From: Vreelandella sedimenti
Lineage (GTDB): Bacteria; Pseudomonadota; Gammaproteobacteria; Pseudomonadales; Halomonadaceae
Assembly: GCF_013416325.1 (NCBI RefSeq)
Contig: NZ_JACCGK010000001.1
Location: 186,001 to 250,000, forward strand
Length of the DNA: 64,000 nt
Direction of reading: 5' to 3'
Shown here: positions 2,612 through 61,143 of the stretch, one piece after another
Numbering within the stretch: position 1 is the stretch's first letter
How the letters are laid out: the number at the start of each line of letters is the position of its first letter
Notes under the pieces: model-generated
The model's database searches: none
The model's input: only the letters and a program-made list of their open reading frames with translations
What the model was told of the DNA's origin: nothing
Made by a program: the position numbers and the translations under genes

Positions 2612-2660
2612 GTTCTCAGTAACAGTCTCAACAGCCGTCTCAACAACAGTCTCAACAACC
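2612..2660. repeat. Degenerate 12-bp tandem repeat in the ltnD leader (4 copies)
   Basis: Four units of about 12 bases follow the pattern GTCTCAACARCM: 2612-2624 (diverged, 13 bases), 2625-2636, 2637-2648 and 2649-2660. The array ends one base before the AAGAGG ribosome binding site of ltnD. It is one of at least ten such arrays in this window. Confidence 0.8.
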
Positions 2661-2675
2661 AAGAGGTGCCGTTAG

Positions 2676-3611
2676 GTGAGCCAACACGATAAGCAATCAC
2701 TTCAAGTAGGTCTTATTGGCCTGGGCGCCATGGGCATGGGTACGGCCACCGCTTTGCTCAAGCAGGGATTTAATGTGACCGGGTGTGATATTTCCGCTGG
2801 GGCACGCGATGCCTTCGTGGCAGCAGGGGGGCAAAGCGTAGCCACTCCTGCCGAGCTTGCTCACTGCCATATCGTGTTGGTGGTTGTCGTTAACGGGGCG
2901 CAGGTTGAGCAAGTGCTGTTCGGTGAGCAGGGGGTGGTAAGCCACTTGGCCCGGGGCAGTCTGATCATCCAGTGCGCCACTGTGGCGCCCAGTCAGGCCA
3001 AACAGCTTGGTGAGCGTGTGGCGGCAGAGGGGTTGCTGCTGCTGGATGCGCCGATTAGCGGCGGTGCTGCTAAAGCCAAAAGTGGTGAACTATCGGTAAT
3101 GGCATCCGGGGCAACGGAGGCATTTACCTACGCCGAAGCAGTGCTAAACGCCATGGCTGCCAAGGTTTATCGCCTTGGCGATGCGCCTGGCGTTGGCTCA
3201 AGTATGAAACTGGTCAATCAACTGCTGGCAGGTGTGCATATCGCCACCGCCGCTGAGGCCATGGCGCTGGGCATTCGTATGGGACTCGACCCAGAGGTGA
3301 TATATGACGTTATTACCCACTCGGCGGGCAACTCCTGGATGTTCGAAAACCGCGTGCCGCATATCCTGAGTGGTGACTACACGCCGCTTTCTGCGGTGGA
3401 TATCTTCGTCAAAGATCTCAACATCGTGCATCAAACCGGCCGCGAGCTGGCGCTGGCAACGCCGGTCGCTTCAAGCGCTCTGCAGCAGTTTACCGCTGCC
3501 AGCGGTGCAGGTTTTGGGCGCGAAGATGACTCGGCGGTGATAAAAGTCTACCAGCGATTATCGGGCATCGCGTTGCCAGAAGCTGCCAACGACGCCCAGG
3601 GAGCCGAATAA
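2676..3611 (+). CDS. ltnD: L-threonate dehydrogenase (LtnD-like)
   Basis: This is a 311-residue member of the 3-hydroxyisobutyrate/6-phosphogluconate dehydrogenase family. It has a Rossmann motif GLGAMG at the N-terminus, the substrate motif DAPISGG near residue 125 and a conserved lysine in GSSMKLVNQLL. In the tetronate pathway LtnD oxidises L-threonate with NAD+ to 2-oxo-tetronate. The start is GTG at 2676, supported by AAGAGG nine bases upstream. It is the first gene of the operon; the kinase follows two bases after its stop. The specific name rests on the otnK-otnC-otnI context. Without it, tartronate semialdehyde reductase would be an alternative. Confidence 0.85.
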   Translation: MSQHDKQSLQVGLIGLGAMGMGTATALLKQGFNVTGCDISAGARDAFVAAGGQSVATPAELAHCHIVLVVVVNGAQVEQVLFGEQGVVSHLARGSLIIQCATVAPSQAKQLGERVAAEGLLLLDAPISGGAAKAKSGELSVMASGATEAFTYAEAVLNAMAAKVYRLGDAPGVGSSMKLVNQLLAGVHIATAAEAMALGIRMGLDPEVIYDVITHSAGNSWMFENRVPHILSGDYTPLSAVDIFVKDLNIVHQTGRELALATPVASSALQQFTAASGAGFGREDDSAVIKVYQRLSGIALPEAANDAQGAE

Positions 3612-3612
3612 A

Positions 3613-4911
3613 ATGGGGATGGGAGCGAACATCGTACTGGGCGCCATTGCCGATGACTTCACTGGAGCGACCGACCTTGCCAATAACCTGGTGCGCGGCG
3701 GTATGCGCTGCCTGCAGGTGATTGGCGTGCCTCAGCAAGAGGTCGACCTCACTGATATCGATGCGGTAATCGTGGCGCTGAAATCGCGTTCCTGCCCGGT
3801 GGACGAAGCCGTGGCGGACTCACTCGCTGCCCTTGAGTGGCTTCGTCAGCAGGGCGCCCGGCAGCTGTTCTTCAAGTACTGCTCCACCTTTGACTCCACC
3901 GACCAAGGCAATATCGGCCCGGTGGCGGATGCGTTGCTGGAAGCTCTGGGTGCGCACCAAACAGTGATGGTGCCCGCCTTCCCGATTAACGGCCGTACGG
4001 TCTACCAGGGCCATCTGTTTGTGGGCGACCGCTTGCTCAACGACAGCGGTATGCAGCACCACCCACTGAACCCCATGCAGGACGCGGATCTCGTGCGAGT
4101 ACTCTCCCGTCAAACGCCGCACCCGGTGGGCTTAGCCAACCGCGCGGTTCTGGTTCAAGGCGCAGAGGCGACCTGTGCTCACTTAACGATGCTGGCAGAT
4201 CAGGGAGTTCGCCATGTGATCTGTGATTCCTTGGACGAACAGGATCTGGAAATTCTGGCTGAAGCTACCGTTTCACTGCCTTTAGTGACCGGCGGTTCTG
4301 GTTTGGGGCAGGCGTTGCCCGCCCAATATCGTGCACAGGGCTGGCTGGGCACGATCAGTGAGCCGGGGCGTTTATCGCCTGCCTCGGGTGGTGCGCTGGT
4401 GCTCTCCGGCAGTTGCTCCCGTGCCACACTTGCACAAGTAGCGGATTTTCTGGCCCAGCACCCTGATGGTGGCTTTGCCCTTGATCCCTTGGCGTTGACC
4501 GAAGGGGGGCAACAGCAGGAACAGGCGCTGGCCTTTGCCCGCAAGCGTTTATCTCAAGAGACGCCGGTACTGCTCTATGCCTCGGCTGATACTGAAAAGG
4601 TTAACGCAGCCCAGCAAGCCCTTGGCGTTGCGCATGCGGGTGCGTTAGTTGAAGAGGCGCTGAGCCAGTTGGCTGTCAAACTTGTAGAGGAAGGCGTGGG
4701 CCGGTTGCTGGTCGCCGGGGGCGAAACGTCAGGCGCGGTGGTCTCAGCGTTGGGTATTACCACCCTGCGCATCGGTGAGCAGATCGACCCTGGCGTGCCC
4801 TGGACGCAAACTTTAATAACGGGTCGCGATGTGCCGCTGTCGCTGGCGCTGAAATCTGGCAACTTCGGTGGCGTCGATTTCTTTACCCGGGCGTTTGAGG
4901 TGCTGGAATGA
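3613..4911 (+). CDS. otnK: 3-oxo-tetronate 4-kinase (DUF1537 family)
   Basis: This 432-residue four-carbon acid sugar kinase has the hallmark ADDFTGATD at residues 13-21 of the N-terminal sugar-binding domain and a C-terminal nucleotide-binding domain with LLVAGGETSGAV. OtnK phosphorylates 3-oxo-tetronate at O4. It starts two bases after ltnD ends and overlaps otnC by four bases (ATGA), so translation is probably coupled. A second ATG six bases further in is possible; I chose 3613 because of its spacing from the AGGGAG site. Confidence 0.92.
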   Translation: MGMGANIVLGAIADDFTGATDLANNLVRGGMRCLQVIGVPQQEVDLTDIDAVIVALKSRSCPVDEAVADSLAALEWLRQQGARQLFFKYCSTFDSTDQGNIGPVADALLEALGAHQTVMVPAFPINGRTVYQGHLFVGDRLLNDSGMQHHPLNPMQDADLVRVLSRQTPHPVGLANRAVLVQGAEATCAHLTMLADQGVRHVICDSLDEQDLEILAEATVSLPLVTGGSGLGQALPAQYRAQGWLGTISEPGRLSPASGGALVLSGSCSRATLAQVADFLAQHPDGGFALDPLALTEGGQQQEQALAFARKRLSQETPVLLYASADTEKVNAAQQALGVAHAGALVEEALSQLAVKLVEEGVGRLLVAGGETSGAVVSALGITTLRIGEQIDPGVPWTQTLITGRDVPLSLALKSGNFGGVDFFTRAFEVLE

Positions 4912-5567
4912 GCATCCACTTGCATCGCCATCCCCAAAACAGTTTGCGGGAGCAGATCAGCACTCTGGGGAAATCGCTGTTTGACCGCGGCCTGACCATG
5001 GGCTCCAGCGGCAATATCAGCGTGCGTCTGGATGACGGCGGCTGGCTGATGACACCCACCAACGCCTGCTTGGGGCGGCTGGATCCTGCACGGATCTCCC
5101 ATCTGGATAACAACGGCCAACTGCTGAGTGGCGATAAGCCTACCAAAGAGCAGTTTTTGCATATGGCGATGTACGAGGAGCGCCCGCAGTCCGGTGCGAT
5201 TGTGCACCTGCACTCCACTCACTCGGTGGCGGTCTCTTGCTTGCCTGATGTGAATCCCTGCGACTGCATACCACCACTCACAGCCTACTACGTGATGCGG
5301 GTGGGGAAACTGCCGCTGGTGCCGTATCACATTCCTGGCGACCCCAAGCTGGGCGATGCAGTGCGGGGATTAGCGGGCAAGCATAGCGCGGTGCTGCTGG
5401 CTAACCACGGCCCAGTGGTGGCGGGGAAAAACCTTGAGGCAGCGGTCTACGCCACCGAAGAACTGGAAGAGACTGCCAAGCTCTATCTGCTGTTAAGGGG
5501 CGAGAACCCAAGAGGGTTAACACCCGAGCAGGTGGCCGAGCTTGAGGCACGTTTTCCACGGGATTAA
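4908..5567 (+). CDS. otnC: 3-oxo-tetronate 4-phosphate decarboxylase (class II aldolase)
   Basis: This 219-residue zinc-dependent class II aldolase/adducin protein shows GSSGNISVR near residue 33, HLHSTHS near 98 (zinc histidines) and ANHGPV near 165. In this pathway OtnC decarboxylates 3-oxo-tetronate 4-phosphate to dihydroxyacetone phosphate and CO2. Its ATG overlaps the otnK stop. Fuculose- or ribulose-phosphate aldolases share the fold; the neighbouring OtnK and OtnI decide the assignment. Confidence 0.9.
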
Positions 5568-5568
5568 C

Positions 5569-5598
5569 GACGCACTTAATAATGACGTACTTAACAAC
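5569..5598. repeat. 15-bp tandem duplication after otnC stop
   Basis: Two adjacent 15-mers of pattern GACGYACTTAAYAAY (5569-5583 and 5584-5598) begin one base after the otnC stop codon and end 12 bases before the otnI start. They differ at three positions. The duplication sets the spacing between the two genes. Confidence 0.75.
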
Positions 5599-5610
5599 AA
5601 GAGCACCACG

Positions 5611-6408: not shown

Positions 6409-6471
6409 TCGGCACTCACTAATCTGCCCCAACTGAATGAACAATAACAAAACTACAACAGGATCCTCACG

Positions 6472-7434: not shown

Positions 7435-7538
7435 GTTCCGGTCTGCCACACTCGGCAGGCAACAGCCTGGGGCGACGTTACCAATAGCGTGTGTCGCTCC
7501 ACACTCCACCCTCACAACAACATAAAGAGGGCACTTCA

Positions 7539-8558: not shown

Positions 8559-8573
8559 GCGCTTCTTCCTCCC

Positions 8574-8598: not shown

Positions 8599-8618
8599 CT
8601 TTGGCATGGTGATCTCTT

Positions 8619-22067: not shown

Positions 22068-22095
22068 TTGACTGCTTTTTCTAAAAATGTATTTT
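22068..22095 (+). promoter_or_regulatory. Sigma-70 promoter of the ABC importer
   Basis: TTGACT (22068-22073) and TATTTT (22090-22095) are spaced by 16 bases in an AT-rich stretch 39 bases before the binding-protein ATG, which has AGGGGA nine bases upstream. Confidence 0.6.
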
Positions 22096-22134
22096 TTAAA
22101 AGCGTATTTTTGAAAACCTAGGGGATATCAGACG

Positions 22135-25178: not shown

Positions 25179-25940
25179 TTACCCCAACTGCCTGCGCCAG
25201 CGGCTCTCTATGGTATCCAGCTCTGCCGGGCCGTACTGTGCATGATCATGCGGCCCGTAGTAGGCCCATAATTGATCGCCGTAATCGAAGTGCCACCACT
25301 CGCTGGGCAGGTTGGTGAAGCCTTGTTGTTGCAGGGTGTGATAGAGCAGGCGGCGGTTATCCCGCGCCTTATGTTGCTGCGTGGTAAGCATTTCCAGCTT
25401 TTCGAAATAGTCGCTATGGGAGGCGGGGAGCGCTTCATCAAACAGGGTGCCCATATCCAGCGGCAGGCCATCGGCATCACAAAGCGTGACATCGACGGCA
25501 CCGCCGGTGAGGTGCGGGCTGGGGGCTAAAGGATCGCGGCTGGGCACCGAGACAAACTCTCTTGTACGCTCCAATAGCTCCGCTTCGCTGAGATCTGGAT
25601 GGTGGTGGTGGATGGCTTCATGCAGGGTATCGAACAAGTACTGCTGCACCCGCCATGGCCGCCAGCCATCCAGTACGATCAACCCGATGCCCTCGGGTAA
25701 GCTACGTGCCGCAGCGAGTAGCGCCCGATAAACCCCCTCACGAACGAAACACTCTGACACCGCACCCGGAATACCCAGCCGAGCATAGGCGGGGAACACG
25801 CTGACCGGTGCCGGGGCGAGGCTCATCGGTACCAGGCGCTCGCCGTTATCTTCAATAGGCGCACGGCGCAACTGCTCCCAGCAGGGGGCTGGGTGGCTGG
25901 GTATAGGCGGCAAGGCCTTCAATAGTGTGCTCAAAGGCAT
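25179..25940 (-). CDS. ddpX: D-alanyl-D-alanine dipeptidase (VanX/DdpX, peptidase M15D)
   Basis: This 253-residue zinc dipeptidase has the M15 motifs SPHLTGGAVD near residues 143-152 (zinc His and Asp) and SEWWHFDYG near 213-221 (catalytic Glu and zinc His), plus the arginine motif LDGWRPW near 90. VanX-type enzymes cleave D-Ala-D-Ala. No signal peptide is visible, so it should act in the cytoplasm on an imported substrate. It is the last gene of the second TRAP operon, with a repeat array between it and dctM. An upstream in-frame TTG at 25952 is less likely as a start. Confidence 0.9.
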   Translation of the reverse strand: MPLSTLLKALPPIPSHPAPCWEQLRRAPIEDNGERLVPMSLAPAPVSVFPAYARLGIPGAVSECFVREGVYRALLAAARSLPEGIGLIVLDGWRPWRVQQYLFDTLHEAIHHHHPDLSEAELLERTREFVSVPSRDPLAPSPHLTGGAVDVTLCDADGLPLDMGTLFDEALPASHSDYFEKLEMLTTQQHKARDNRRLLYHTLQQQGFTNLPSEWWHFDYGDQLWAYYGPHDHAQYGPAELDTIESRWRRQLG

Positions 25941-25943
25941 TAT

Positions 25944-26012
25944 GTTATCCAAGCAGAGTGTTATCCAAGCTGGTTATCAAAATCAGGTTATTAAACTGGT
26001 TGTCAAAATTGA
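25944..26012. repeat. Degenerate 12-16-bp tandem repeat across the dctM stop (5 copies)
   Basis: Five units begin GTTRTC or GTTATT: 25944-25959, 25960-25972, 25973-25986, 25987-25998 and 25999-26012, with the theme GTTATCMAARCWG. The last unit contains the stop codon of the TRAP large permease (26003-26005). The first lies four bases before the ddpX start, so the array fills the gap between the two genes. Confidence 0.78.
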
Positions 26013-27277
26013 GTAGGCAGCCACAGCGTCAGCGGTGGAAAAAGAATGAGGAGAATAAGCACCGCAATTGCCGTCAGTACAAAGGGCCAAATGGTTCTAA
26101 ATAGCGACACTATCTCAAGCCGACTAACCGCGGCGGCCACGAACACACAGGCGCCCAGCGGTGGCGTGATCAACGCAATGGTAATGTTCAGTGTGATGAT
26201 GACGCCCAGATGAATGGGGTCGATACCCGCCATCATAGCCACCGGCGCAAAGATCGGCGTCAGTAGCATCAATGCCGACACCTCTTCCATAAACATGCCC
26301 GTGATGAAGGTGATCGCACTAAGCAGCAATAAAATAACCACGCTATTGTCCACGTAGGGTGATAGTAGGGATACAAATTGCGTAGGCACTTGCGCATAGG
26401 AGAGCAGCCAGCTAATCGTCGCCGAGGCCGCCATGATGAGAAAAATCGCCGAGGTTAAACGTGCCGTATCAAGGATGGCTTGCCAGCACTCTTTCAAGCG
26501 TAAACCACCCAGCACAAAGCCACATAAGGCCACATACAGTGCTGTCAACGCGCCCGACTCTGTAGGCGTCACAAAGCCCAGCACGATGCCAGCAACAATA
26601 ATAAAGGGAGCGATAAGCGCAGGCAGAGCGGCTGCGAAGGCTATGCCAAGTTGGCCGATTGAGGGCAACTGGCCACTTTTGGGTAATCGGTGGCGCCAGG
26701 CATACCAGGCGTTCATGCCCATAAAGGCAACCCCCAACAGCAGACCCGGAACCACGCCCGCCAGAAATAGATCACCTACTGAGGTGTTCGTCAGTGAGGC
26801 GTAGAGGATCATAAAGATACTGGGGGGAATAATCGGGCCGATCAGCGAGCTACCGGCAGTCAATCCTGCGGCAAAGGCTCTTGAGTAGCCCTCCTTCTCC
26901 ATGGCAGGTACTAACAGCGACCCCAGTGCCGAGGTGTCCGCCACCGCTGAGCCATTGACACCAGCGAAGAAAACGCTCGACACCACGTTGACGTGGCCCA
27001 TACCGCCCCGCAAGTGTCCCACTATTAGTCGGGCGAACCCCATCAGGCGCTCGGTTAAGCCGCTGACGTTCATCAGGTTGCCAGCGAAGATGAATAACGG
27101 AATAGCCATCAAGGAGAACACATTGATACCGCCAAAGAATTGCTGGGGCAGCATACGTGGAATCATCGAGGGGTCGACAAACAGAAAGCCCACTATCGCG
27201 GTGGTCAGCAGTGCGATGAACAGAGGAAGTCCAAGCAGAACGTGGCCGAGGAAAACCACCAGCATCGTCACAATCAT
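26003..27277 (-). CDS. TRAP transporter large permease (second system)
   Basis: This is a 424-residue DctM-family permease. Its conserved segments are FSLMAIPLFIFAGNLM, GVNGSAVADTSALGS, IPPSIFMILYA, VTPTESGAL and LITPPLGACVFV. Its ATG overlaps the small-permease stop by four bases. It is followed by ddpX. The neighbouring dipeptidase suggests D-Ala-D-Ala or a related peptide as substrate, which is inference. Confidence 0.92.
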   Translation of the reverse strand: MIVTMLVVFLGHVLLGLPLFIALLTTAIVGFLFVDPSMIPRMLPQQFFGGINVFSLMAIPLFIFAGNLMNVSGLTERLMGFARLIVGHLRGGMGHVNVVSSVFFAGVNGSAVADTSALGSLLVPAMEKEGYSRAFAAGLTAGSSLIGPIIPPSIFMILYASLTNTSVGDLFLAGVVPGLLLGVAFMGMNAWYAWRHRLPKSGQLPSIGQLGIAFAAALPALIAPFIIVAGIVLGFVTPTESGALTALYVALCGFVLGGLRLKECWQAILDTARLTSAIFLIMAASATISWLLSYAQVPTQFVSLLSPYVDNSVVILLLLSAITFITGMFMEEVSALMLLTPIFAPVAMMAGIDPIHLGVIITLNITIALITPPLGACVFVAAAVSRLEIVSLFRTIWPFVLTAIAVLILLILFPPLTLWLPTQF

Positions 27278-27765
27278 AAGGTGTCCTCAACGGTTTTTAG
27301 CGGCGCGGGGCCATAGAGAAGCGCATGCCAAGCCAGTAATAAAAAGCCAACGGGTAGCGAGAGGAGGGGCACCGTGCGGCTAATGCCAAGTCCTGAGGTG
27401 GTAAACATGCTGACGGAGAGTGCATAGCGATAGCTGATCCAGGCTCCCCCCGCTGCAATCAGTAGGGTGAGTAGCCACTGGTACACATTCAGCAAACGCG
27501 CGAAGGGGGTTGGCAGCAGCTTCTCCAACAGGCCAACGCGCATGTGACCCCCTTCCGACCAGACGGTGCCAGCCGCGAGCATCACGGTGGCGATAATCAA
27601 AAATCGCGATATCTCATCTGTCCAAATAGGGGCGCCACCGGCGATGTAGCGGGCAAACACCCCAAACAGAATGGCCGCAACATTGAGGCATAACAGCGCG
27701 CCCGCCAGGGTTAGGGACACCGGGCGGCTGATCGCCAGTAGACGGGATCGAAGTGTATTAAACAT
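27274..27765 (-). CDS. TRAP transporter small permease (second system)
   Basis: This 163-residue DctQ-type protein has four hydrophobic segments and the family motif WTDEISRFLIIATVMLAAG near residues 47-65. It overlaps the large permease. A four-unit 15-bp repeat array lies ten bases before its start. Confidence 0.88.
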   Translation of the reverse strand: MFNTLRSRLLAISRPVSLTLAGALLCLNVAAILFGVFARYIAGGAPIWTDEISRFLIIATVMLAAGTVWSEGGHMRVGLLEKLLPTPFARLLNVYQWLLTLLIAAGGAWISYRYALSVSMFTTSGLGISRTVPLLSLPVGFLLLAWHALLYGPAPLKTVEDTL

Positions 27766-27775: not shown

Positions 27776-27835
27776 CATGAAGTACAGAAACGTTAAGCAC
27801 TAGAACATTCAGTACTGGGATATTAAGTACTGGAA
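27776..27835. repeat. 15-bp tandem repeat between dctP and dctQ (4 copies)
   Basis: Four consecutive 15-mers on the theme YRTTMAGTACTGGAA occupy 27776-27790, 27791-27805, 27806-27820 and 27821-27835. Units 3 and 4 are the closest pair. The array makes up more than half of the 111-base gap between two TRAP genes. Confidence 0.85.
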
Positions 27836-27876: not shown

Positions 27877-28956
27877 TTAGTCGAGCAGTTCGCTCATGCC
27901 TGCATCTTCCAGCGCCATATCGATCCAGCGTTGCTCGATATCACGTTCTTCAAGCCATTCAAGATAAGCGGGCTGGCCAATGTCACGGAAAGCGCTGAGC
28001 TCCTCTTCAGAGGGGAGAATCACTTCCATGCCTTGCTCTTCCAGGTAGGTGATACGCGCCTCAACCTGTTCCTCGTTGTGCTCACGGGCATTGTGATTAG
28101 CTTCGGCGACGGCCTCCATAAAGGAGCTACGAAGCTCATCGTCCCAGCCTGCGATCATGTCGCTATTGCCGACAAGGAACTGGTTGGAGTACTGGATATT
28201 GGCCAAGGTCAGATAGTCCTGCACTTCGTAGAGGCTGCCCAGGCTGATATACATCGGCGGGTTCATCTGGCCGTCCGCTACCCCTGTGCGCAGCGCCATG
28301 TAGGTCTCTGTCCAGGGGATGGGAGTGCCGGAGGCACCGAAGGATTCATAGAGGGCTACCTGGCTGGGATCCATGGCCCGGAAACGCAGCCCTTCGAAGT
28401 CGTCAGGGTGACTGATAGGCCTTTCGTTGTTGGTGAATGCCAAAAAGCCCCCCTCTTCGACGACCGCCAGCATAGCGACACCAGCACGCTCCTGCAGAGC
28501 ATTACTGACTTCCTGCCAATACGCTCCTTCATCGAAGAAGCTACGCGCCGCCGCAAAGTCGTCGAACAGAAACGGAATAGCGCTGACGAAGATCTCATCA
28601 ACGAGAGGAGAGACGCCTGCAAATGACGCCACGTTGAGCATGGGCGTATTCATGGTTTGTTCCATGCGCTCCTCTTCATCACCCAGCATGCTATTCGGGT
28701 AGAGCTCAAGCTGTATCTCACCGTCAGTTTTTTCGTCTACCAACGTTTTAAGGTTCTCTGCAAAGACGTGGACAGCATTCTTTTCCGGGTCAGGGGCGCC
28801 GTTATAGCTCAGATTAATCGTGGTAGCCGCGAAAGAATTTCCCGCCATCAAGGCAGAGCCAATCAGGCAAGCTGAGATGAGTTGCTTGAGTGAAAAGCGT
28901 TGAGTCAATGTAGGTTGAGTAAGCACAGGTTGTTTAAACATAAGCTGATTACACAT
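27877..28956 (-). CDS. TRAP transporter substrate-binding protein (second system)
   Basis: This is a 359-residue DctP-family protein. A signal peptide hydrophobic core (LISACLIGSALMAGNSFA) follows an unusual N-region MCNQL-MFKQP-VLTQP-TLTQR, a five-residue repeat encoded by a 15-bp tandem array. The mature part has GLRFRAMDPSQVALYESFGAS and RTGVADGQMNPP. AGGAG seven bases before the ATG at 28956 supports this start; a second start at MFKQP is possible. It is probably regulated by the LysR gene just upstream. Confidence 0.9.
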   Translation of the reverse strand: MCNQLMFKQPVLTQPTLTQRFSLKQLISACLIGSALMAGNSFAATTINLSYNGAPDPEKNAVHVFAENLKTLVDEKTDGEIQLELYPNSMLGDEEERMEQTMNTPMLNVASFAGVSPLVDEIFVSAIPFLFDDFAAARSFFDEGAYWQEVSNALQERAGVAMLAVVEEGGFLAFTNNERPISHPDDFEGLRFRAMDPSQVALYESFGASGTPIPWTETYMALRTGVADGQMNPPMYISLGSLYEVQDYLTLANIQYSNQFLVGNSDMIAGWDDELRSSFMEAVAEANHNAREHNEEQVEARITYLEEQGMEVILPSEEELSAFRDIGQPAYLEWLEERDIEQRWIDMALEDAGMSELLD

Positions 28957-28958
28957 AG
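28899..28958. repeat. 15-bp tandem repeat covering the dctP start codon (4 copies)
   Basis: Four 15-mers on the theme GTTGAKTAARCAYAG lie at 28899-28913, 28914-28928, 28929-28943 and 28944-28958. Unit length divisible by three lets the array be translated as a pentapeptide repeat at the N-terminus of the TRAP binding protein. Confidence 0.85.
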
Positions 28959-31399: not shown

Positions 31400-31602
31400 G
31401 CGTACCCCTTCCGTCATGGAACCTGAGAGATTCACGCACTCGCTGGCGCGCTTGCTCCTTCGGTGGGCTGAGTGACGCAGTCATCAGCCGCTCTTCGGAA
31501 AGTGATGGTGATAGCGGTCCGGTTGCCTGAGAGTTTCCGGGGCTGTTGCTCCTTCGGCGCTGGCGTCATCGGTTATTGATGCGCCAAGCTCTCCCGCTAT
31601 CA
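31400..31602 (-). promoter_or_regulatory. Tandem glycine riboswitch controlling dadA
   Basis: Reading the minus strand, two similar aptamers lie in series. Aptamer I (about 31600-31511) is closed by a GCGGGAGAG/ACCGCT-type stem and aptamer II (about 31502-31406) by TTTCCG/CGGAAG. Each carries CCGAAGGAGCAA (complement at 31546-31557 and 31452-31463) and CTCTCAGG (around 31525-31533 and 31422-31430), the conserved core of glycine riboswitches. About 60 bases separate aptamer II from the dadA start. The expression platform is not obvious; CTCTC of aptamer II could pair with the GGAGAG ribosome site. Confidence 0.9.
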
Positions 31603-31615
31603 CGTTGTTGCTGGC

Positions 31616-31672
31616 TTTTAATGTAGATAGTTTTTTAATGTGATTAGTTTTACGCGATCAGTTTTAGCATGG
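31616..31672. repeat. Degenerate 14-17-bp tandem repeat upstream of the riboswitch
   Basis: Units beginning TTTTA and ending in AG occupy 31616-31630, 31631-31647, 31648-31661 and a partial one from 31662. This fills most of 31601-31693, the rest of the 409-base gene-free stretch between dadA and aidB; no convincing promoter is visible there. Confidence 0.6.
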
Positions 31673-31693: not shown

Positions 31694-31761
31694 GCTTATT
31701 CCACGGGGCTTATTCCAAGGACTCACTCCAAGGGCTCACTCCAAGGGTTTTATTCCACGGG
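31694..31761. repeat. 13-14-bp tandem repeat overlapping the aidB stop (5 copies)
   Basis: Five units on the theme (G)CTYAYTCCAAGGG lie at 31694-31707, 31708-31721, 31722-31734, 31735-31747 and 31748-31761. Units 3 and 4 are identical. The last unit includes the aidB stop codon (31750-31752) and its final codons. Confidence 0.85.
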
Positions 31762-33423
31762 CCGGGCACGCTGGATGATTGCCGCGCAATCCAGCCCGGT
31801 GGTTAGCGTGCCTGTATTGAGGCCACTGCGGTCGGCAAGCCGACCAGCGCAGAATGCATCGGCCACATAAGCGGGGGCGTGCTGAACCATCAGGGCGCCT
31901 TGTAACGCTAGGGCCATGCCGTCCGCCAACTGGCGAGCACGGTACTGGAGCGCTTGGGTATCCTGCATCTGTCGCTGTAATTGGTGGATAAAGCGGTCAA
32001 GATGCCCATTGGCGCTTTGCGCTTTGGCAAGCTCGGCGAAGTAAGCGTCAAGCACTTCGGGCTGTTTTTCAATCGCGCGCAGGATATCCAAACACTGCAC
32101 ATTTCCGCTGCCTTCCCAAATGGCGTTGATGGGCGACTCGCGAAACAGTCGCGCCATTATGTGGGTCTCCATTACACCGCTTCCGCCAATCACCTCCATT
32201 GCTTCGTAAGCGTGGTGGGGCGTGCGTTTACAGATCCAGTACTTGCCGACGGGGGTGGCGATTCGCGAAAGCAAGCGCTCATGCTCGTTGTCCTGATGAT
32301 CCATGGCGCGGGCCATACGCAGCATTAAGGTGGTGGCGGCTTCGCTCTCAATGGCCAAGTCAGCGAGTACGTTCTGCATCAGCGGCTGTTCGCTGAGCCG
32401 CGCCCCAAAGGCATGCCGATGAGAGGCGTGGTGAATGGCCTGGGCGGTGGCTTGGCGCATTCCGGCAGCTGAGCCAATCATGCAGTCGTAGCGGGTCATG
32501 GCGACCATCTCGATGATGGTGCGCACGCCGCGTCCTTCATCGCCCACCATCCAGGCAAAGGCGCCCCGCAGCTCGGTCTCGCTGGAGGCATTCGATACGT
32601 TGCCCATTTTACGTTTTAGCTGCTGTATATGAAGCGGGTTTTTACTGCCGTCGGGCCGCCAGCGTGGCAGCAAGAAACAGCTTAAGCCGCCGGGCGCCTG
32701 TGCGAGCACCAGGAAGGCATCGCACATGGGCGCCGAGACAAACCACTTATGGCCGACCAGTTCGTAGGCTTCTCCTGGCCCGCCTTGATCAATCGGGTAG
32801 GCGCGGGTGGTGTTCAAACGCACATCGGAGCCCCCTTGCTTTTCGGTCATTGCCATGCCGAGAGTGAGGCCCTGTTTCTCGAAATAGGGGACGTTGCGCG
32901 GGTCGTAATGTGGGGCGGTGATTTTAGCGCCCCAACTCTCAAACAGGCTGGGTTGATGGCGCAGCGCGGGCAGGGCTGCAAAGGTCATGGTAATCGGGCA
33001 GCCATGGCCCGCTTCTACCTGGGCCTGTAAAAAGTAGTTGGCGGCCCGATAAACATGCGCACCGGGCTGAGGGTTTCGCCAGGGGCTGGCATGCAAGCCG
33101 TGCTCTATCGCCGTTTGCATCAGTTGATAATAGGCGGGATGAAACTCGATCAAATCGACCCGATGGCCTTGCCGGTCGTGGGTCACTAACTGGGGGGAGT
33201 AACGGTTGGCCTCAACCCCCAAAGCAATCGCCTCAGCGGAGCCCGCCCACTGGCCAAACGCCTTGAGTGGGGCATCGTCGTCAGACCCGCTTTCACGGTT
33301 AACGCCTTCCTGAAGAGCACGATCAGCTATGTAACTATTGTAGTTTGCAAGCGTCGGCGGCTGGTTTTCCACCTGATGGGTATTAGCTTGGAGTTGATCG
33401 GCCAGGGGGTAATGGTGGTTCAT
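31750..33423 (-). CDS. aidB: AidB-like acyl-CoA dehydrogenase
   Basis: This 557-residue protein is an AidB-type flavoprotein with the acyl-CoA dehydrogenase fold. It has GMAMTEKQGGSDVR near residue 190, the FAD-binding IGGSGVMET and the AidB-type WEGSGNVQCLDILRA near 435. AidB protects DNA during alkylation stress and is not a normal fatty-acid oxidation enzyme. I chose the ATG at 33423, with TAGG nine bases upstream, over a GTG three codons earlier. It stands alone as a gene. Confidence 0.92.
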   Translation of the reverse strand: MNHHYPLADQLQANTHQVENQPPTLANYNSYIADRALQEGVNRESGSDDDAPLKAFGQWAGSAEAIALGVEANRYSPQLVTHDRQGHRVDLIEFHPAYYQLMQTAIEHGLHASPWRNPQPGAHVYRAANYFLQAQVEAGHGCPITMTFAALPALRHQPSLFESWGAKITAPHYDPRNVPYFEKQGLTLGMAMTEKQGGSDVRLNTTRAYPIDQGGPGEAYELVGHKWFVSAPMCDAFLVLAQAPGGLSCFLLPRWRPDGSKNPLHIQQLKRKMGNVSNASSETELRGAFAWMVGDEGRGVRTIIEMVAMTRYDCMIGSAAGMRQATAQAIHHASHRHAFGARLSEQPLMQNVLADLAIESEAATTLMLRMARAMDHQDNEHERLLSRIATPVGKYWICKRTPHHAYEAMEVIGGSGVMETHIMARLFRESPINAIWEGSGNVQCLDILRAIEKQPEVLDAYFAELAKAQSANGHLDRFIHQLQRQMQDTQALQYRARQLADGMALALQGALMVQHAPAYVADAFCAGRLADRSGLNTGTLTTGLDCAAIIQRARPVE

Positions 33424-33636
33424 GGTAGGCACCTAGCGCGTAACGACGATAAGGGTGATTGTTTAAACGAACATTTTACGGTTCATATATTTTGGAGCGC
33501 TTATGAGAGCGTAGTTGCTGGCCGGAAAAGTCGCTAAAAACGGAGGGCGAAAAGGGGTAGGGATGGATCCTGCTTTGCTCAGTCAGCGTATTTAACCGAC
33601 AATGCCGCTTATCCTTCTCAGTCATGGGTACTATCG

Positions 33637-51079: not shown

Positions 51080-52636
51080 ATGACACCTAAACTCCCCATC
51101 AACATTGATGACTTGCTCCATCACCGCACGGTGGAAAGCGAACGCATTGAATACAAGGAAGGATGGAACCCTGAGTCCATCCTGCATACCTTGTGTGCCT
51201 TCGCTAATGACTTTCACAATTTGGGTGGTGGTTATGTACTGGTGGGCGTTGCTGAAAAGAATGGCCAACCGCAGCTACCGCCTGCTGGTCTGTTACCGGA
51301 GCAAATCGATGCTATTCAAAAAGAGCTGTTAAATCTTGGGCACTCAGCGATTGCGCCGCACTATCACCCGTTAACCGCGACCTATGAGATCCAGGGCAAA
51401 ACAATTTTGGTGCTATGGGCTCCGGGCGGCGAAACACGTCCCTATAAAGCTAAAACCAGCTTGAGTAAGAAGAGTGATTGGGCCTATTACCTGCGCAAAC
51501 ATACCAGCACGGTAAAAGCATCGGGGCGGGATGAGCGCGAGCTGCTAAATTTGGCGGCAACCGTGCCCTTTGATGATCGCTATCGCCAAACGGCGAATTT
51601 AAGCGATCTTTCTCCCTATTTGATGCGTGATTTTTTGCACGACATTAGCAGCGAGTTAGTGGGTGAAGCCCGAGACCTGGATATTGAAACCCTGGGCCGC
51701 CGAATGAACGTGGTTGGTGGGCCAAGCGAAATGGCTTTTCCAAAAAATGTAGGGCTTTTGTTCTTTAACGAGCATCCCAAGCAGTTTTTCCCCGCGACTC
51801 AGATAGATGTGGTGTATTTTCCAGACGGTGCCGGTGGCGACCACTTTGAAGAGAAGGTATTTCAGGGGCCACTGGGGCGTATCACTCGCGATGCATTAGA
51901 CTACATTAATCGCAACTATCTAAAAGAGGGCGTAACAAAACACGCTGATCGCCCAGAGGCCGAGCGTTTCTGGAATTTTCCGCTGATCGCTATTGAAGAG
52001 GCGGTGGTGAATGCGGTTTATCACCGCTCTTATGAAATTCGTGAGCCCATTGAAGTTCGTATTGATGGTCAGGAGCTTGTGGTGCTCAGCTTCCCAGGGC
52101 CAGACCGCTCTATTCGATTGCAAGACCTGCAGGCAGGTAAAGCAGTCAGCCGCCGCTACCGCAACCGGCGTATCGGCGAGTTTTTAAAAGAGCTGGATTT
52201 AACCGAAGGCCGTTCAACGGGCGTGCCAAAAATTCTTCGGGTGATGAAGGCGAACGGCTCTCCGGCGCCAGTGTTCGAAACCGACGATGAACGCAGCTAC
52301 TTTTTAATTCGCTTACCCGTTCACGAGGGATTTTTGGTCGATCAGGAAGCAGAGGTCAAAGTCACCCCCGAAGTCACCCCCGAAGTCACCCCCGAAGTCA
52401 CCCCCGAGATTTTACGTCTGCTCAAATCCTTTGAAGGTGAGGTGGGAAGAGCTGAGTTGATGGCAGCGTTGGGGCTACAAGACGAGAAGCATTTCAGAGA
52501 ACGTTATCAGCAAATCGCAATGAAACAGGGCTTAATCGAGATGACGGTTCCAGACAAACCTCGTAGTCGCCTGCAAAAATATCGATTAACAGACCTAGGT
52601 AAGCAAGTGCTTGCCACCAAGAATACGCATCAATAA
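51080..52636 (+). CDS. AlbA/Schlafen-type putative DNA-binding regulator with ATPase-like domain
   Basis: The 518-residue protein begins with an AlbA_2/Schlafen domain (ESERIEYKEGWNPESILHTLCAFANDFHNLGGGYVLVGV). A GHKL-type HATPase_c_4 domain follows near residues 300-385 (IEEAVVNAVYHRSYE, GRSTGVPKILRVM). Next come a VTPE linker repeat and a C-terminal winged helix near 450-518. Such proteins are often called transcriptional regulators or RecG-like; some occur in defence regions. It is a single gene without partners. The start at 51080 is the only good ATG. Confidence 0.85.
   Translation: MTPKLPINIDDLLHHRTVESERIEYKEGWNPESILHTLCAFANDFHNLGGGYVLVGVAEKNGQPQLPPAGLLPEQIDAIQKELLNLGHSAIAPHYHPLTATYEIQGKTILVLWAPGGETRPYKAKTSLSKKSDWAYYLRKHTSTVKASGRDERELLNLAATVPFDDRYRQTANLSDLSPYLMRDFLHDISSELVGEARDLDIETLGRRMNVVGGPSEMAFPKNVGLLFFNEHPKQFFPATQIDVVYFPDGAGGDHFEEKVFQGPLGRITRDALDYINRNYLKEGVTKHADRPEAERFWNFPLIAIEEAVVNAVYHRSYEIREPIEVRIDGQELVVLSFPGPDRSIRLQDLQAGKAVSRRYRNRRIGEFLKELDLTEGRSTGVPKILRVMKANGSPAPVFETDDERSYFLIRLPVHEGFLVDQEAEVKVTPEVTPEVTPEVTPEILRLLKSFEGEVGRAELMAALGLQDEKHFRERYQQIAMKQGLIEMTVPDKPRSRLQKYRLTDLGKQVLATKNTHQ
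52361..52408 (+). repeat. Four 12-bp in-frame repeats encoding VTPE
   Basis: GTCACCCCCGAA occurs four times in tandem (52361-52372, 52373-52384, 52385-52396 and 52397-52408, the last ending GAG). It encodes (VTPE)4 in the linker of the AlbA-type regulator. Near identity indicates recent slippage. Confidence 0.95.
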
Positions 52637-53125: not shown

Positions 53126-53154
53126 TCCACTGCTCCCTCACGCTGGTTGCTTCC

Positions 53155-53176
53155 TGTGGGCATAATGTGGGCATAG
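53155..53176. repeat. 11-bp tandem duplication
   Basis: TGTGGGCATAA (53155-53165) and TGTGGGCATAG (53166-53176) are adjacent near-identical units upstream of the hypothetical gene. The rest of the 53126-53286 gap shows nothing I can name. Confidence 0.7.
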
Positions 53177-55284: not shown

Positions 55285-55295
55285 AGTGTTCTTCC

Positions 55296-56000
55296 TTAAC
55301 TACGACAGAATGGCCAGACCTGGTAAAACTTGCGGCATTGAAACTCCGCTTCGCAAGCATTGAGCTGGGCTTGGTAACGGTTAGCGCGAGCTGCTACTTG
55401 TCTCCCCGCGCTCAATACCTGTGGTTTGCTGCGGTAAGAACCCCGCTGGTAGCCGCCTGCGCCTTCGTGATAGGCGTAGTAGAGGTGCTCAGGATTGGTT
55501 AGCGATATGCCTGCTTGCTGCTGGGAACGACGGTTGTACCAGCCAATAAAATCCGTGGCGTGTTTCATATGAGTACGCCGGGCAAACAGACTGCCCGCTT
55601 GATCCTCATACTCCTCCCAAACGGGGTCTTGGGCCTGGGCGTAGCCTTTGGCAGAAGAGGGGCGGGGGCCGGGAATAAAGCCTAAGTAGTATTTTCGATC
55701 AGGACGAATATGGCTCCGAAATGAAGACTCTTGCTGGATAAATGCCATCTGAGTGGCGATCGGTGTGCCCCACTTCTCCTCTGACTCCTGGGCATAGTCG
55801 TACCAGCTTGGTTGCTCGCGGAATATCTCGCAGATATTACTTTGATCCTGGGGCGGGTTGGGCGCAAAGGTGGCGCAGCCGGAAAGCAGAGTTAAAAGGC
55901 TCAGCGTTACCCATAGGCGCAGCTTAGTGAAAGCCGCTGGGAAGCAAGACGAGAAATCAGCGCTAAAGTACTCAGTGATACCTTCAACCGGGTGACGCAT
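55296..56000 (-). CDS. SLT-type transglycosylase-like lipoprotein
   Basis: The 234-residue protein has a hydrophobic leader ending in a lipobox, LLSGC near residues 38-42, so it should be a lipoprotein. The leader is long, and a shorter start is possible. It has a lysozyme-like core with the putative catalytic glutamate in MAFIQQESSFRSHI and downstream SSAKGYAQAQDPVWEEY and YYAYHEGAGGY. The family cleaves peptidoglycan glycan strands. Its ribosome site AAGGA is part of the repeat array just upstream. Confidence 0.82.
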   Translation of the reverse strand: MRHPVEGITEYFSADFSSCFPAAFTKLRLWVTLSLLTLLSGCATFAPNPPQDQSNICEIFREQPSWYDYAQESEEKWGTPIATQMAFIQQESSFRSHIRPDRKYYLGFIPGPRPSSAKGYAQAQDPVWEEYEDQAGSLFARRTHMKHATDFIGWYNRRSQQQAGISLTNPEHLYYAYHEGAGGYQRGSYRSKPQVLSAGRQVAARANRYQAQLNACEAEFQCRKFYQVWPFCRS

Positions 56001-56006
56001 AGCAAG

Positions 56007-56097
56007 TCCTTGTGAATTATCTTTTGTGGATTAGTTCTTGTGAATAGGCTTTTGTGAACAGTCTCTTGTGGATAAGCCCTTGGGAGCCTGTGGGTAA
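56007..56097. repeat. 14-bp tandem repeat of DnaA-box-like units
   Basis: At least five units of about 14 bases on the theme TYTTGTGRATARKC lie at 56007-56021, 56022-56035, 56036-56049, 56050-56063 and 56064-56077, with partial units to 56097. Unit 5 contains TGTGGATAA (56067-56075), the complement of the DnaA box TTATCCACA. TGTGGATTA (56025-56033) and TGTGGGTAA (56089-56097) differ from it by one base. All boxes share the same orientation. Confidence 0.82.
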
Positions 56098-56137
56098 GTA
56101 TTGGGTAACTGTATTTTATCAATAGTCCTAGCTCGCC

Positions 56138-57556: not shown

Positions 57557-57602
57557 CCTTATCCTCACCGTCACGATGTTCACCAATTTTCCAGTAAAAC
57601 AG

Positions 57603-57632
57603 AAAAGTGGTCTGGTTGAACGCAAAAGTGGT
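57603..57632. promoter_or_regulatory. Direct-repeat operator between gabR and gabD
   Basis: AAAAGTGGT occurs at 57603-57611 and 57624-57632, 21 bases apart, on the same face of the helix. It lies in the 138-base divergent gap. Spaced direct repeats are the usual target of MocR/GabR proteins. Confidence 0.65.
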
Positions 57633-57694
57633 GCATTCGCCTGCAACCACATTACTGCTAGCGTGCACGCAGTGTTATTAATCAGGAGAAGACC

Positions 57695-59146: not shown

Positions 59147-59154
59147 AGAGAACG

Positions 59155-60429
59155 ATGATGACTAACCAAGAATTGAATGACCTGAAAAACCGCTACGTGG
59201 CCAACGGTGCTGCCACGCCGACGACCCAGTTTGCCGAGCGCGCTGAAAATGCTGAACTGTGGGACGCCGATGGCAACCGCTGGATCGATTTCGCCGGTGG
59301 GATTGGCGTGCTGAACCTGGGCCATCGCCACCCAAAAATCGTTGCCGCCGTCGAAGCGCAGCTCAAGAAAGTTATGCACACCAGCGCGGCGGTGATCTCC
59401 TACGCGCCCTACGTACAGCTGTGCCAAAAGCTGTGTGAACTAAGCCCGGTGCGCGGCCCTGAGCGCAAAGCGATGCTGGTCAATACCGGTGCCGAAGCGC
59501 TGGAAAACGCAGTGAAGATCGCTCGCGCCGCCACTGGCCGCACCGGCATTATTACGTTCGATGGCGCCTTCCACGGCCGCACCATGATGACCCTGGCGAT
59601 GACAGGCAAGGTGCTGCCCTACAAGAACGACTTCGGCCCGATGCCGGGCGACGTGTTCCGCGCACCCTTCCCGAACCCGTTGCACGGCATCAGCGAAGAA
59701 GCGTCTTTGGATGCCATTCGCACGCTGTTCAAGACCGATATCGCCCCGCACCGCACGGCGGCCATTGTAATTGAGCCGGTACAGGGCGAAGGCGGCTTCT
59801 ACATAGCCTCACCGGACTACCTGAAAGCGCTGCGCGCGCTGTGCGACGAGCACGGCATTCTGCTGATTGCTGACGAAGTGCAGTCTGGTTTTGCTCGCAC
59901 CGGCAAGCTGTTTGCCCTCGAACATAGCGGTATTGAGGCGGATATTCTCACCACCGCCAAAAGCCTCGCTAACGGCATGCCGCTGTCGGCTGTTGTGGGC
60001 ACCGCCAAAGTAATGGACGCTTCCGGCCCTAACTCACTAGGCGGCACCTACAGCGGCAACCCGCTCTCCTGCGCCGCGGCGCTGGCGGTGATTGAGGTGA
60101 TCGAAGAGGAGAATATTCTTGAGCGCAGCGAGCAGATGGGCAAAATGCTCGCCGAGCGTTTCGCGGTATGGGAAGAGCGCTTCCCCGCCGTGGCCCAAGG
60201 CCGCCAGCTCGGCGCCATGGCGGCGTTTGAGCTGCTTGATAGCGACGGCAAACCGGATGCGCAAATGACCGGCGCGCTGTGCGCCAAAGCCCGCGAAAAA
60301 GGCCTGATCCTGCTTTCCTGCGGTTTCTACGGCAACAGCATCCGTATTCTGGTACCGCTGACGGTGTCGACTGCGGTGTTGGAAGAAGGTTTGAGCATTA
60401 TTGAGCAGTCTTTGGAGGCGCTTAGTTAA
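59155..60429 (+). CDS. gabT: 4-aminobutyrate aminotransferase
   Basis: This 424-residue class III aminotransferase has IADEVQSGFARTG near residue 240 and the PLP lysine in TTAKSLANGMPLSAVVG near 268, plus GGTYSGNPLSCAAALAV. It transfers the GABA amino group to 2-oxoglutarate, giving the substrate of GabD. An ATG one codon later is equally possible as the start. It is the last gene of the gab operon. Confidence 0.94.
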   Translation: MMTNQELNDLKNRYVANGAATPTTQFAERAENAELWDADGNRWIDFAGGIGVLNLGHRHPKIVAAVEAQLKKVMHTSAAVISYAPYVQLCQKLCELSPVRGPERKAMLVNTGAEALENAVKIARAATGRTGIITFDGAFHGRTMMTLAMTGKVLPYKNDFGPMPGDVFRAPFPNPLHGISEEASLDAIRTLFKTDIAPHRTAAIVIEPVQGEGGFYIASPDYLKALRALCDEHGILLIADEVQSGFARTGKLFALEHSGIEADILTTAKSLANGMPLSAVVGTAKVMDASGPNSLGGTYSGNPLSCAAALAVIEVIEEENILERSEQMGKMLAERFAVWEERFPAVAQGRQLGAMAAFELLDSDGKPDAQMTGALCAKAREKGLILLSCGFYGNSIRILVPLTVSTAVLEEGLSIIEQSLEALS

Positions 60430-60435
60430 TAGCGT

Positions 60436-61085
60436 TTAAGCATCACAAAGCCCGCCCTCGTCAAACAGCGAAAGCTGCTGGCGATGGGTGGGCTTTGCTT
60501 TTTTAGCGCGCTGAGCGGATGGCCGCCGCTGGCTGACGAGCTTATCCACAATGGCTTTGCTGGCTTCTCTGGCTTCCGGCGTACGACGGAGCTCATACAG
60601 CATCTTTTTCCAGTGGCGCGCTTCGGCTTCAAAGTCGTGGGGCCGCGGGTAGTGTTCTCCAGGCTGGAAACCAAACCGCTGTTGCAGGCTTTCGGGCAGC
60701 GCCCAGGGCTTGGCGCGCCGTGCTGTTGGCACCATGCCTTGACGCTAAGATCGCGGACAAAGCTCCAGGCGTTGCCTGTCTCTTCATGAGAGTGAAGAGC
60801 AAACTCGCCGTAATGGGTTTTCAGAGCGTTCAGCAAATCGACAATATCGCCTTGCCAAAGACACAACGGCAGGCCCAGTGTTTCCAATGCGTTTGAAAGG
60901 TCTATCAGTGAGTCAGCGGCAAACTGCCAATGGCGCAGGGCGCTGTCTTGCGCTTGCCACTGTCCGGGTTCAATGGCGAATACGGGCAACACTGGGCCAG
61001 CCATGGCGGCGTTGGCAAGCGGCGCGTGATCATGAATACGTAAATCGCGTTTGAACCAAACGACCTGGATAGGTGCCTTAGCCAT
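60436..61085 (-). pseudogene. Deoxyribodipyrimidine photolyase/cryptochrome gene with internal deletion and frameshift
   Basis: The first about 123 residues (QVVWFKRDLRIHDHAPL onwards to KAWCQQHG) are an intact photolyase antenna-domain start. Near 60717 the frame changes and the other frame gives ALPESLQQRFGFQPGEHYPRPHDFEAE with a basic tail, which is the extreme C-terminus of the same family. The roughly 300 residues of the FAD domain between them are missing. The intact family protein is about 450-520 residues. The gene is therefore non-functional. Confidence 0.88.
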
Positions 61086-61114
61086 TAATAATACGGATAC
61101 CCGACGGTTGAGAG

Positions 61115-61143
61115 CTATTCGCCGCTAAGTCTATTCGCCACTA
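61115..61143. repeat. 13-bp direct repeat, 16-bp period
   Basis: CTATTCGCCGCTA (61115-61127) and CTATTCGCCACTA (61131-61143) lie just upstream of the broken photolyase start, between it and the ABM monooxygenase gene. Confidence 0.7.

What the first reader, a model, noticed from the sequence alone, without database searches (positions are those of the whole stretch)
2612..61143. At least ten unrelated short tandem-repeat arrays in gaps between genes
Arrays lie at 2612-2660, 5569-5598, 25944-26012, 27776-27835, 28899-28958, 31616-31672, 31694-31761, 53155-53176, 56007-56088 and 61115-61143. Unit length is 11-17 bp (often 15), copy number 2-5, and each has its own unit sequence. They are diverged, so not recent slippage only, and they abut or overlap stop codons, ribosome sites or start codons. 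This looks like a genome-wide process of spacer growth by local duplication, perhaps tuning gene spacing or translation. I know of no described element like this, and no named repeat family fits because the sequences are unrelated.
Basis: partly seen in the sequence, partly recalled or inferred. Interest (0 to 1): 0.75.

Follow-up and report, generated by a model that had tools for sequence, protein, structure and literature searches.

The report
Self-growing spacers between bacterial genes
In this salt-loving bacterium and some of its relatives, the gaps between genes keep gaining and losing side-by-side copies of whatever 13 to 16 letters happen to be there, far more than in the other bacteria sampled, which points to an unexplained mutation process rather than to a functional element.

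Summary
Two arrays are partly coding. The pattern is genome-wide: 44 arrays with 12-18 bp lags in 97.9 kb of gaps against 0.6 in shuffles. Units share no consensus. Orthologous gaps differ in copy number between Vreelandella species. Of 59 distinct tandem-type indels of 9-24 bp, 48 are 13-16 bp, though the closest pair also shows 10-12 bp ones. Arrays mutate by substitution like their surroundings, but indels are 3-4 times denser. E. coli (26 kb) and five sister genera (34 kb) have none, two genera have more; betaproteobacteria have some. No start-codon or orientation preference was found, so 'tuning translation' is unsupported. Best reading: birth and decay of short minisatellites seeded by de novo 13-16 bp duplications; 5 of the 7 cleanest junctions show 0-2 bp overlap, 2 show 4-7. 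Ku end joining, dnaQ loss and the two known TopA mutator residues do not explain it. The enzyme is unknown.

The parts
2605..2660 (+). array of about 4.6 copies of a 12-bp unit (CAACAACAGTCT), just upstream of gene 2676-3611
   Evidence: TRF; score 24, 0 of 400 shuffles; a 12-bp unit differs from G008
5565..5598 (+). two copies of a 15-bp unit that include the stop codon of gene 4908-5567
   Evidence: 2 of 400 shuffles; one copy in G008, two in G017
22077..22116 (+).
   Evidence: the orthologous gap in locus L013 carries about six 15-bp units
25944..26012 (-). five diverged 12-16 bp units at and between the ends of TRAP permease gene 26003-27277 (-) and gene 25179-25952 (-)
   Evidence: 0 of 400 shuffles; relatives have from one to five units
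27776..27835 (-). four 15-bp units upstream of gene 27274-27765 (-)
   Evidence: copy number varies among the orthologous gaps, longest in L025/L091
28899..28958 (-). four 15-bp units at the start of the reading frame of gene 27877-28956 (-), frame kept
   Evidence: score 18, 0 of 400 shuffles; the orthologous gaps fetched are shorter, 280-316 against 329 bp
31616..31672 (-). three to four 14-17 bp units next to a glycine riboswitch (31505-31606)
   Evidence: riboswitch from Rfam; number and sequence vary among relatives
31694..31761 (-). five 13-14 bp units at the 3' end of acyl-CoA dehydrogenase-like gene 31750-33432 (-), each holding a stop triplet on the gene strand (read)
   Evidence: score 21, 0 of 400 shuffles; one unit in L085, L087 and some others, more in the rest
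33511..33526 (+). single-copy 16-bp site that is tandemly duplicated in V. titanicae (G008), single in the window and in G017: a polarised new duplication
53155..53176 (.). 1.9 copies of an 11-bp unit (TGTGGGCATAA then TGTGGGCATA)
   Evidence: 2 of 400 shuffles; the shortest and weakest case
56007..56088 (-). about five 14-bp units upstream of gene 55296-56000 (-)
   Evidence: score 25, 0 of 400 shuffles; gap 137 bp here, 63 in G008, 113 in G017
61115..61143 (+). two copies of a 16-bp unit; two copies also in G017, one in G008

Best explanation
Each array is a private minisatellite grown from the local sequence. Shown here: in this genome and in part of the Halomonadaceae, intergenic DNA carries tandem copies with a rather narrow unit length (mostly 13-16 bp), unrelated from locus to locus, varying in copy number between species, and diverging at the ordinary intergenic rate. 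In coding DNA only frame-keeping lags of 12, 15 and 18 bp were seen among lags 11-19, more often than expected near the start codon. Inferred: (1) a lineage-biased mutation process makes de novo head-to-tail duplications of about 13-16 bp, often with little or no pre-existing repeat; (2) once two copies exist, slippage or recombination between them adds and removes whole units; (3) copies decay by point mutation, so the genome holds arrays of all ages; (4) selection mainly filters, removing frame-breaking events in genes and tolerating the rest in spacers. For step 1 the likeliest chemistry is two offset single-strand nicks about 13-16 bp apart whose gap is filled by strand displacement and resealed, perhaps at stalled type IA topoisomerase complexes, as in the E. 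coli topA R168C mutator. That last step is a guess (about 0.25 on its own).
For: Excess: 44 arrays of lag 12-18 in 97.9 kb of gaps against 0.6 in shuffles. Lag counts in the 88-kb set: 13:8, 14:10, 15:7, 16:4, 17:4, 18:5, and 0 to 3 at every lag of 7-12 and 19-40. No shared consensus among 41 arrays (6.673 against 6.668, SD 0.020). Orthologous gaps differ by whole units. Distinct tandem-type indels among 29 Vreelandella loci: 48 of 59 between 9 and 24 bp are 13-16 bp, 7 are 9-12 bp; three more are 30 or 45 bp. Among 13-18 bp indels, tandem-type are 16 of 215 in Vreelandella and 1 of 118 in Stutzerimonas/Pseudomonas (p 0.008, pairs not independent). Indels of 6 bp or more per base are 4.1 and 3.3 times denser in arrays (p 0.006 and 0.002), substitution identity alike (0.931 against 0.920; 0.914 against 0.892). 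Coding repeats of lag 11-19: 36 of 36 are 12, 15 or 18 bp; 8 of 36 begin within 60 nt of the called start codon against 2.1 expected, 3 end within 60 nt of the stop. Junctions: four two-copy arrays of identity 0.93 or more have overlaps of 2, 0, 0 and 1 bp, the polarised gain in G008 none (read from the alignment). Adjacent-copy identity spans 0.64-1.0 over 63 arrays. Lineage differences: E. coli 0 in 26 kb, five sister genera 0 in 34 kb, G070 10 in 10.4 kb, G089 8 in 10.8 kb.
Against: The next two-copy arrays in order of identity (0.92 and 0.89) have overlaps of 7 and 4 bp, and several more diverged ones 4-10 bp, which slippage at short repeats would give; my cut at 0.93 was made after seeing the list, and I left out one row of identity 1.0 that is part of the larger array at 25944. 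The lower edge of the length band is soft: between the window genome and G008, tandem-type indels were 3 of 14 at 9-12 bp and 4 of 8 at 13-18 bp; with G017 2 of 15 and 5 of 16; G008 with G017 0 of 10 and 5 of 18. Other bacteria also exceed shuffles at a lower rate (betaproteobacterial loci 12 against 1.3 at score 12, of which 4 of 6 at score 13 have lags of 12-18, in 27.6 kb; Stutzerimonas/Pseudomonas 8 against 0.7 in 45.5 kb; class sample 12 against 4.4 in 42 kb). The TopA residues whose change makes E. coli a mutator (R35, R168) and the active-site residues checked are unchanged. No gene tested separates array-rich from array-poor genomes. The indels come from about ten gaps in one 20-kb region, so events are partly shared by descent. 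New copies are often less alike than species divergence would suggest, so some may be old copies lost elsewhere. Convergent gaps hold fewer arrays (3 in 11.4 kb) than divergent ones (17 in 31.1 kb), which pure neutrality would not predict, but this is not significant (p 0.46).
Confidence: 0.62

Rival explanations
1. Ordinary replication slippage between chance short direct repeats, as in all bacteria, with a higher rate or weaker removal in these lineages.
For: Two of the seven cleanest junctions have 4 and 7 bp of overlap, and several diverged arrays 4-10 bp; unit loss in G008 at 5565 looks like deletion between copies; tandem-type indels of 10-12 bp occur between the closest genomes; other bacteria have some arrays too. 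Slippage is the textbook source of such arrays (recalled).
Against: Tandem-type lengths peak at 13-16 bp instead of declining from short to long, with none at 19 bp or more in the three pairs; five of seven clean junctions have 0-2 bp of overlap; sister genera with the same polA, sbcD and dnaQ hits lack the arrays in the samples taken.
Confidence: 0.28
2. Selected elements: repeats that tune spacing, ribosome standby or mRNA stability, kept because they work.
For: Many arrays lie in leader regions of genes; convergent gaps have the lowest density (not significant).
Against: No start-proximal enrichment (p 0.48), no significant orientation effect (p 0.46), substitutions as frequent as outside, unit turnover, no shared sequence, and stop-codon, coding and leader locations alike.
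Confidence: 0.07
3. Degenerate members of one dispersed family or binding sites of one regulator.
For: A slight excess of unit pairs sharing 9 or more of 10 bases (21 against 13.4, SD 4.4); by eye, AAGTAC-like cores recur.
Against: Mean similarity between units equals that of shuffled units; lags vary from 12 to 18; single-copy orthologs are ordinary local sequence.
Confidence: 0.02
4. Fill-in of staggered breaks by Ku-dependent end joining.
For: Fill-in of a 13-16 nt stagger would give exactly such duplications (inference).
Against: Ku was found in 25 of 151 family genomes, in 6 of 24 genera (g2, g4, g14, g19, g20, g23), but in none of g1, g7 or g11, the array-rich genera.
Confidence: 0.01

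Closest known systems
Bacterial minisatellites / VNTR loci
   Same: Head-to-tail copies with copy number differing between relatives.
   Different: Usually discussed locus by locus (recalled); here 57 of 495 sampled gaps carry an array of lag 7-40, with a peak in unit length and strong differences between genera.
De novo tandem duplications of the E. coli topA R168C mutator (PMC6954433; abstract, passages and part 1 of the Results read)
   Same: Short head-to-tail duplications (2-19 bp in galK) said to be independent of existing repeats.
   Different: A laboratory mutant; its lengths span 2-19 bp; the TopA of the window's genome keeps R168 and R35.
Intergenic repeat growth in Candidatus Portiera, a whitefly endosymbiont placed near the Halomonadaceae (PMC7821994; passages read; placement recalled)
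   Same: Related lineage; intergenic expansion and tandem repeats.
   Different: Linked there to loss of dnaQ and reduced repair in an endosymbiont; here dnaQ is present and gaps make up about a tenth of the sampled genome (88 of 840 kb).
REP/PU and MIRU-type intergenic repeats (PU in PMC2884548, passages read; MIRU recalled)
   Same: Intergenic, clustered, copy number variable.
   Different: Those are sequence families shared between loci; these units are unrelated.

Membership tests
Bacterial minisatellite / VNTR | head-to-tail direct copies of a unit above about 10 bp | tested here: met
Bacterial minisatellite / VNTR | copy number varies between related genomes | tested here: met
   between species; within one species not tested
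TopA-R168C type mutator spectrum | duplications need no pre-existing repeat | tested here: inconclusive
   of the 7 cleanest junctions 5 have 0-2 bp overlap, 2 have 4 and 7 bp; diverged arrays cannot be judged
TopA-R168C type mutator spectrum | altered TopA at R168 | tested here: not met
   R168, R35 and the catalytic residues checked are the same as in E. coli
Portiera-type genome instability | loss of dnaQ proofreading | tested here: not met
   dnaQ over the curated cut-off in 15 of 15 genomes
REP/MIRU-like dispersed family | unit sequence shared between loci | tested here: not met
Ku-dependent end-joining scars | Ku present | tested here: not met
   no match in g1, g7 or g11 among 151 family genomes of 24 genera
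Regulatory site arrays / iterons | common binding consensus | tested here: not met
Regulatory site arrays / iterons | bound by a protein | not testable with these tools
   needs an experiment

The most novel reading that the evidence does not exclude
Some Halomonadaceae carry an intrinsic, ruler-like duplication activity: an enzyme or enzyme pair that cuts or displaces 13-16 bp and reseals it as a tandem copy without needing homology, acting all over the chromosome and continuously reshaping the lengths of gaps and protein N-termini. It would be a natural, permanent counterpart of the E. coli topA duplication mutator.
Probability: 0.28. Interest if true: 0.82.

Novelty: new variant of a known kind. 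Interest (0 to 1): 0.57.

Why it matters
How tandem repeats first arise from non-repeated DNA is described as unknown in PMC6954433 (passage seen). A lineage in which this seems to happen at a visible rate, with a measurable unit length and close sister genera that lack the arrays in the samples taken, would make the question testable by genetics and comparative genomics. It would also be a steady source of variation in spacer length and in protein N-termini.

Tried and rejected
Common consensus among units: none. Start-codon proximity: none. Gene-orientation effect as expected from negative supercoiling: trend only, p 0.46, and in G070 and G089 6 of 18 arrays of lag 12-18 lie in convergent gaps. 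Ku end joining: absent from the array-rich genera (10 of 114 in the class sample). TopA mutator residues: unchanged. polA: 15 of 15 genomes. sbcD: 14 of 15 over the cut-off, weak only in G009. Y-family polymerases: 15 of 15, counts 1-6 without a pattern matching the arrays. A third type IA topoisomerase appeared in three genomes with no or few arrays, G129, G072 and G153, but the family-wide search shows it scattered, also in four g1 genomes, so I dropped it. dnaQ: present in 15 of 15.

One search timed out without output and was rerun smaller as (at most 120 pairs per group; 107 and 81 gave data; gaps with flank identity outside 75-97.5%, aligned identity under 0.68, or very long were dropped). 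One search ran all 406 pairs of 29 loci with similar filters. Marinobacter gave one usable pair only. Genome G195 of the class sample gave no usable gaps. The five 'zero' sister genera were grouped after seeing that they had none, so the P values for them are post hoc. My gene finder is a simple codon model trained on each sample, not a published annotator.

Literature searches (open-licence PMC papers only) listed no description of such arrays in free-living Halomonadaceae; I read passages of only five of the papers listed (PMC7821994, PMC6954433 with part of its Results, PMC2884548, PMC12226641, PMC4122945). PMC12226641 reports 303 tandem repeats and 211 minisatellites in one Halomonas genome; in the passages seen they are not analysed further. 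PMC4122945 reports eight tandem repeats of 100-330 bp in the endosymbiont Evansia.
Full report
What the window is. The window is G000:C1:186001-250000 of a 5.06-Mb genome. By DNA and protein similarity it is a Vreelandella (formerly Halomonas); the nearest named relative found is V. titanicae BH1 (94% protein identity).

Observation. All ten arrays exist. In gap-level tests, 8 of 10 were reached by 0 of 400 dinucleotide shuffles and 2 of 10 (5569, 53155) by 2 of 400 (gap limits chosen by me). Three further arrays lie at 22077, 38595 and 61179. One listed array lies at the start of a reading frame (28899) and one overlaps a gene end (31694).

Genome-wide test. I scored self-match at lags of 7-40 bp (match +1, mismatch -1, threshold 12) in gaps called with a simple gene finder. 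In 840 kb of the genome (495 gaps, 88 kb) there were 63 arrays against 3.3 in shuffles, 38 against 0.4 for lags 13-18, in 57 of 495 gaps. With 100 kb more (98 kb of gaps): 70 against 3.6 in all, and 44 against 0.6 for lags 12-18. Coding DNA (750 kb) had 84 hits, mostly at multiples of three. The threshold of 12 makes two-copy arrays with units under 12 bp invisible, so the lower edge of the lag spectrum must be judged from indels instead.

Indels. Between orthologous gaps of 29 Vreelandella loci (406 pairs) there were 101 distinct tandem-type indels of 5 bp or more: lengths 5-8: 39 (likely largely chance at 70% identity over so few bases), 9-12: 7, 13-16: 48, 18-24: 4, and 30 or 45 bp: 3, which are multiples of 15. 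In a matched comparison, tandem-type events were 16 of 215 indels of 13-18 bp in Vreelandella and 1 of 118 in Stutzerimonas/Pseudomonas, and 0 of 271 against 0 of 150 for 9-12 bp. These events come from about ten gaps and are partly shared by descent. A wider sample of gaps between three close genomes gives a softer lower edge: tandem-type indels were 3 of 14 (9-12 bp) and 4 of 8 (13-18 bp) for the window genome and G008, 2 of 15 and 5 of 16 with G017, 0 of 10 and 5 of 18 for G008 and G017, and none of 17, 23 and 15 indels of 19 bp or more. So there is a peak at 13-16 bp with a firm upper edge and a softer lower one.

Evolution of single gaps. At 25944 L009, L085, L087, L090 and L095 have one unit, more distant loci one or an unclear number, and others two to five; at 27776 L025/L091 has the longest array; at 31694 L085, L087 and some others have one unit and the window five; at 22077 L013 has about six units of 15 bp. 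Against V. titanicae (G008), 4 of 11 gaps with arrays show an indel of 6 bp or more in the array, against G017 9 of 11; the per-base excess is 4.1-fold and 3.3-fold. Substitution identity inside and outside arrays is alike (0.931 and 0.920; 0.914 and 0.892). One gain can be polarised: a 16-bp duplication in G008 at a site that is single in the window (33511-33526) and in G017, with no junction overlap and one base difference at the junction, as I read the alignment. Four two-copy arrays of this genome with identity of 0.93 or more have overlaps of 2, 0, 0 and 1 bp; the next two (identity 0.92 and 0.89) have 7 and 4 bp; a row of identity 1.0 that belongs to the larger array at 25944 was left out. 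Adjacent copies are more alike (0.751, 20 arrays) than copies two or three units apart (0.649, 20; 0.631, 7), though arrays were chosen by adjacent similarity, which biases this.

No shared sequence, no clear preference of place. Units of 41 arrays resemble each other no more than shuffled units do (6.673 against 6.668), apart from a slight excess in the tail (21 pairs against 13.4, SD 4.4). Arrays are no nearer to start codons than chance. Orientation counts were 3 convergent, 24 co-directional and 17 divergent, expected 5.1, 24.9 and 14.0, p 0.46. In genes only lags of 12, 15 and 18 occur among 36 hits of lag 11-19; 8 of 36 begin in the first 60 nt against 2.1 expected, and 3 end in the last 60 nt: what a process acting in genes too, filtered by the reading frame, would leave. 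Some coding hits are probably ordinary protein repeats, and the start codons are those of my gene finder.

Where it occurs. Arrays of lag 12-18 per kb of gap (except own): own 0.45, G008 0.38, G017 0.49, G044 0.57, G009 0.37, G005 0.20, G028 0.08 (all g1); G070 (g11) 0.96; G089 (g7) 0.74; G095 (g16) 0.27, G153 (g4) 0.20, G152 (g2) 0.09; zero in G074, G072, G082, G129 and G106 (34 kb together) and in E. coli K-12 (26 kb). A class-wide sample of 14 genomes had 12 arrays against 4.4 in shuffles in 42 kb, 2 of them of lag 13-18. Among the loci around one gene (score 13 or more, lags 8-30): Vreelandella 37 in 68 kb (0.7 in shuffles), Stutzerimonas/Pseudomonas 6 in 45.5 kb (0), betaproteobacteria 6 in 27.6 kb (0.3), other halomonads 1 in 7.4 kb, Marinobacter 0 in 7.3 kb. 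So arrays are not unknown elsewhere; what differs is the rate and the peak. Samples are 40-200 kb per genome, so low values are uncertain.

Mechanism. Shown: locus-private units, a peaked unit length, turnover between species, near-neutral substitution, strong differences between lineages. Inferred: a mutation process that duplicates 13-16 bp de novo, then birth and decay. The best precedent is the E. coli topA R168C mutator, where half of the galK resistance mutations were de novo tandem duplications of 2-19 bp, described as independent of existing repeats (PMC6954433; abstract, passages and part 1 of the Results read). But the window genome's TopA keeps R168 and R35. Ku is absent from g1, g7 and g11. 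polA, sbcD, dnaQ and Y-family polymerases do not separate array-rich from array-poor genomes, nor do type IA topoisomerase counts. Physical rulers near this length, recalled and not tested, include the transcription bubble and the UvrABC excision patch (about 12-14 nt). Ordinary slippage remains the main rival.

Comparison with the known. In kind these are minisatellites. What is unusual is the density, the peaked length, the lack of any family and the lineage pattern. In the literature searched the closest reports I saw concern the endosymbionts Portiera, tied to dnaQ loss (PMC7821994, passages read), and Evansia (PMC4122945, passages read); dnaQ loss does not apply here.

Verdict. I file it as a new variant of a known kind, with an unknown enzyme.

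Noticed in passing
window 31505-31606 (-): Glycine riboswitch (RF00504, 64 bits) upstream of a D-amino acid dehydrogenase-like gene; variable 14-17 bp arrays sit directly beside it.
   Followed up: partly
window 52359-52407: 4.1 perfect copies of a 12-bp unit inside gene 51080-52636, whose 518-aa product matched no NCBIfam family.
   Followed up: no
G000:C1 about 78.7-79.4 kb (within L115): A reading frame with a long, nearly uniform 18-bp tandem array (lag score 368), that is, a six-codon repeat.
   Followed up: no
G070 sample (L165, L166, L242, L243): Long arrays of 13-bp units (lag scores 73 and 124, up to about 11 copies) in gaps, far more uniform than those of the window.
   Followed up: no
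G129:C1:3568316, G072:C1:1181843, G153:C1:481475: A third type IA topoisomerase with scattered distribution in the family, possibly carried by mobile elements (inference).
   Followed up: partly
G009:C1:962506: In this Vreelandella genome the sbcD match is only partial (51 bits, below the cut-off), unlike the 14 others tested.
   Followed up: no
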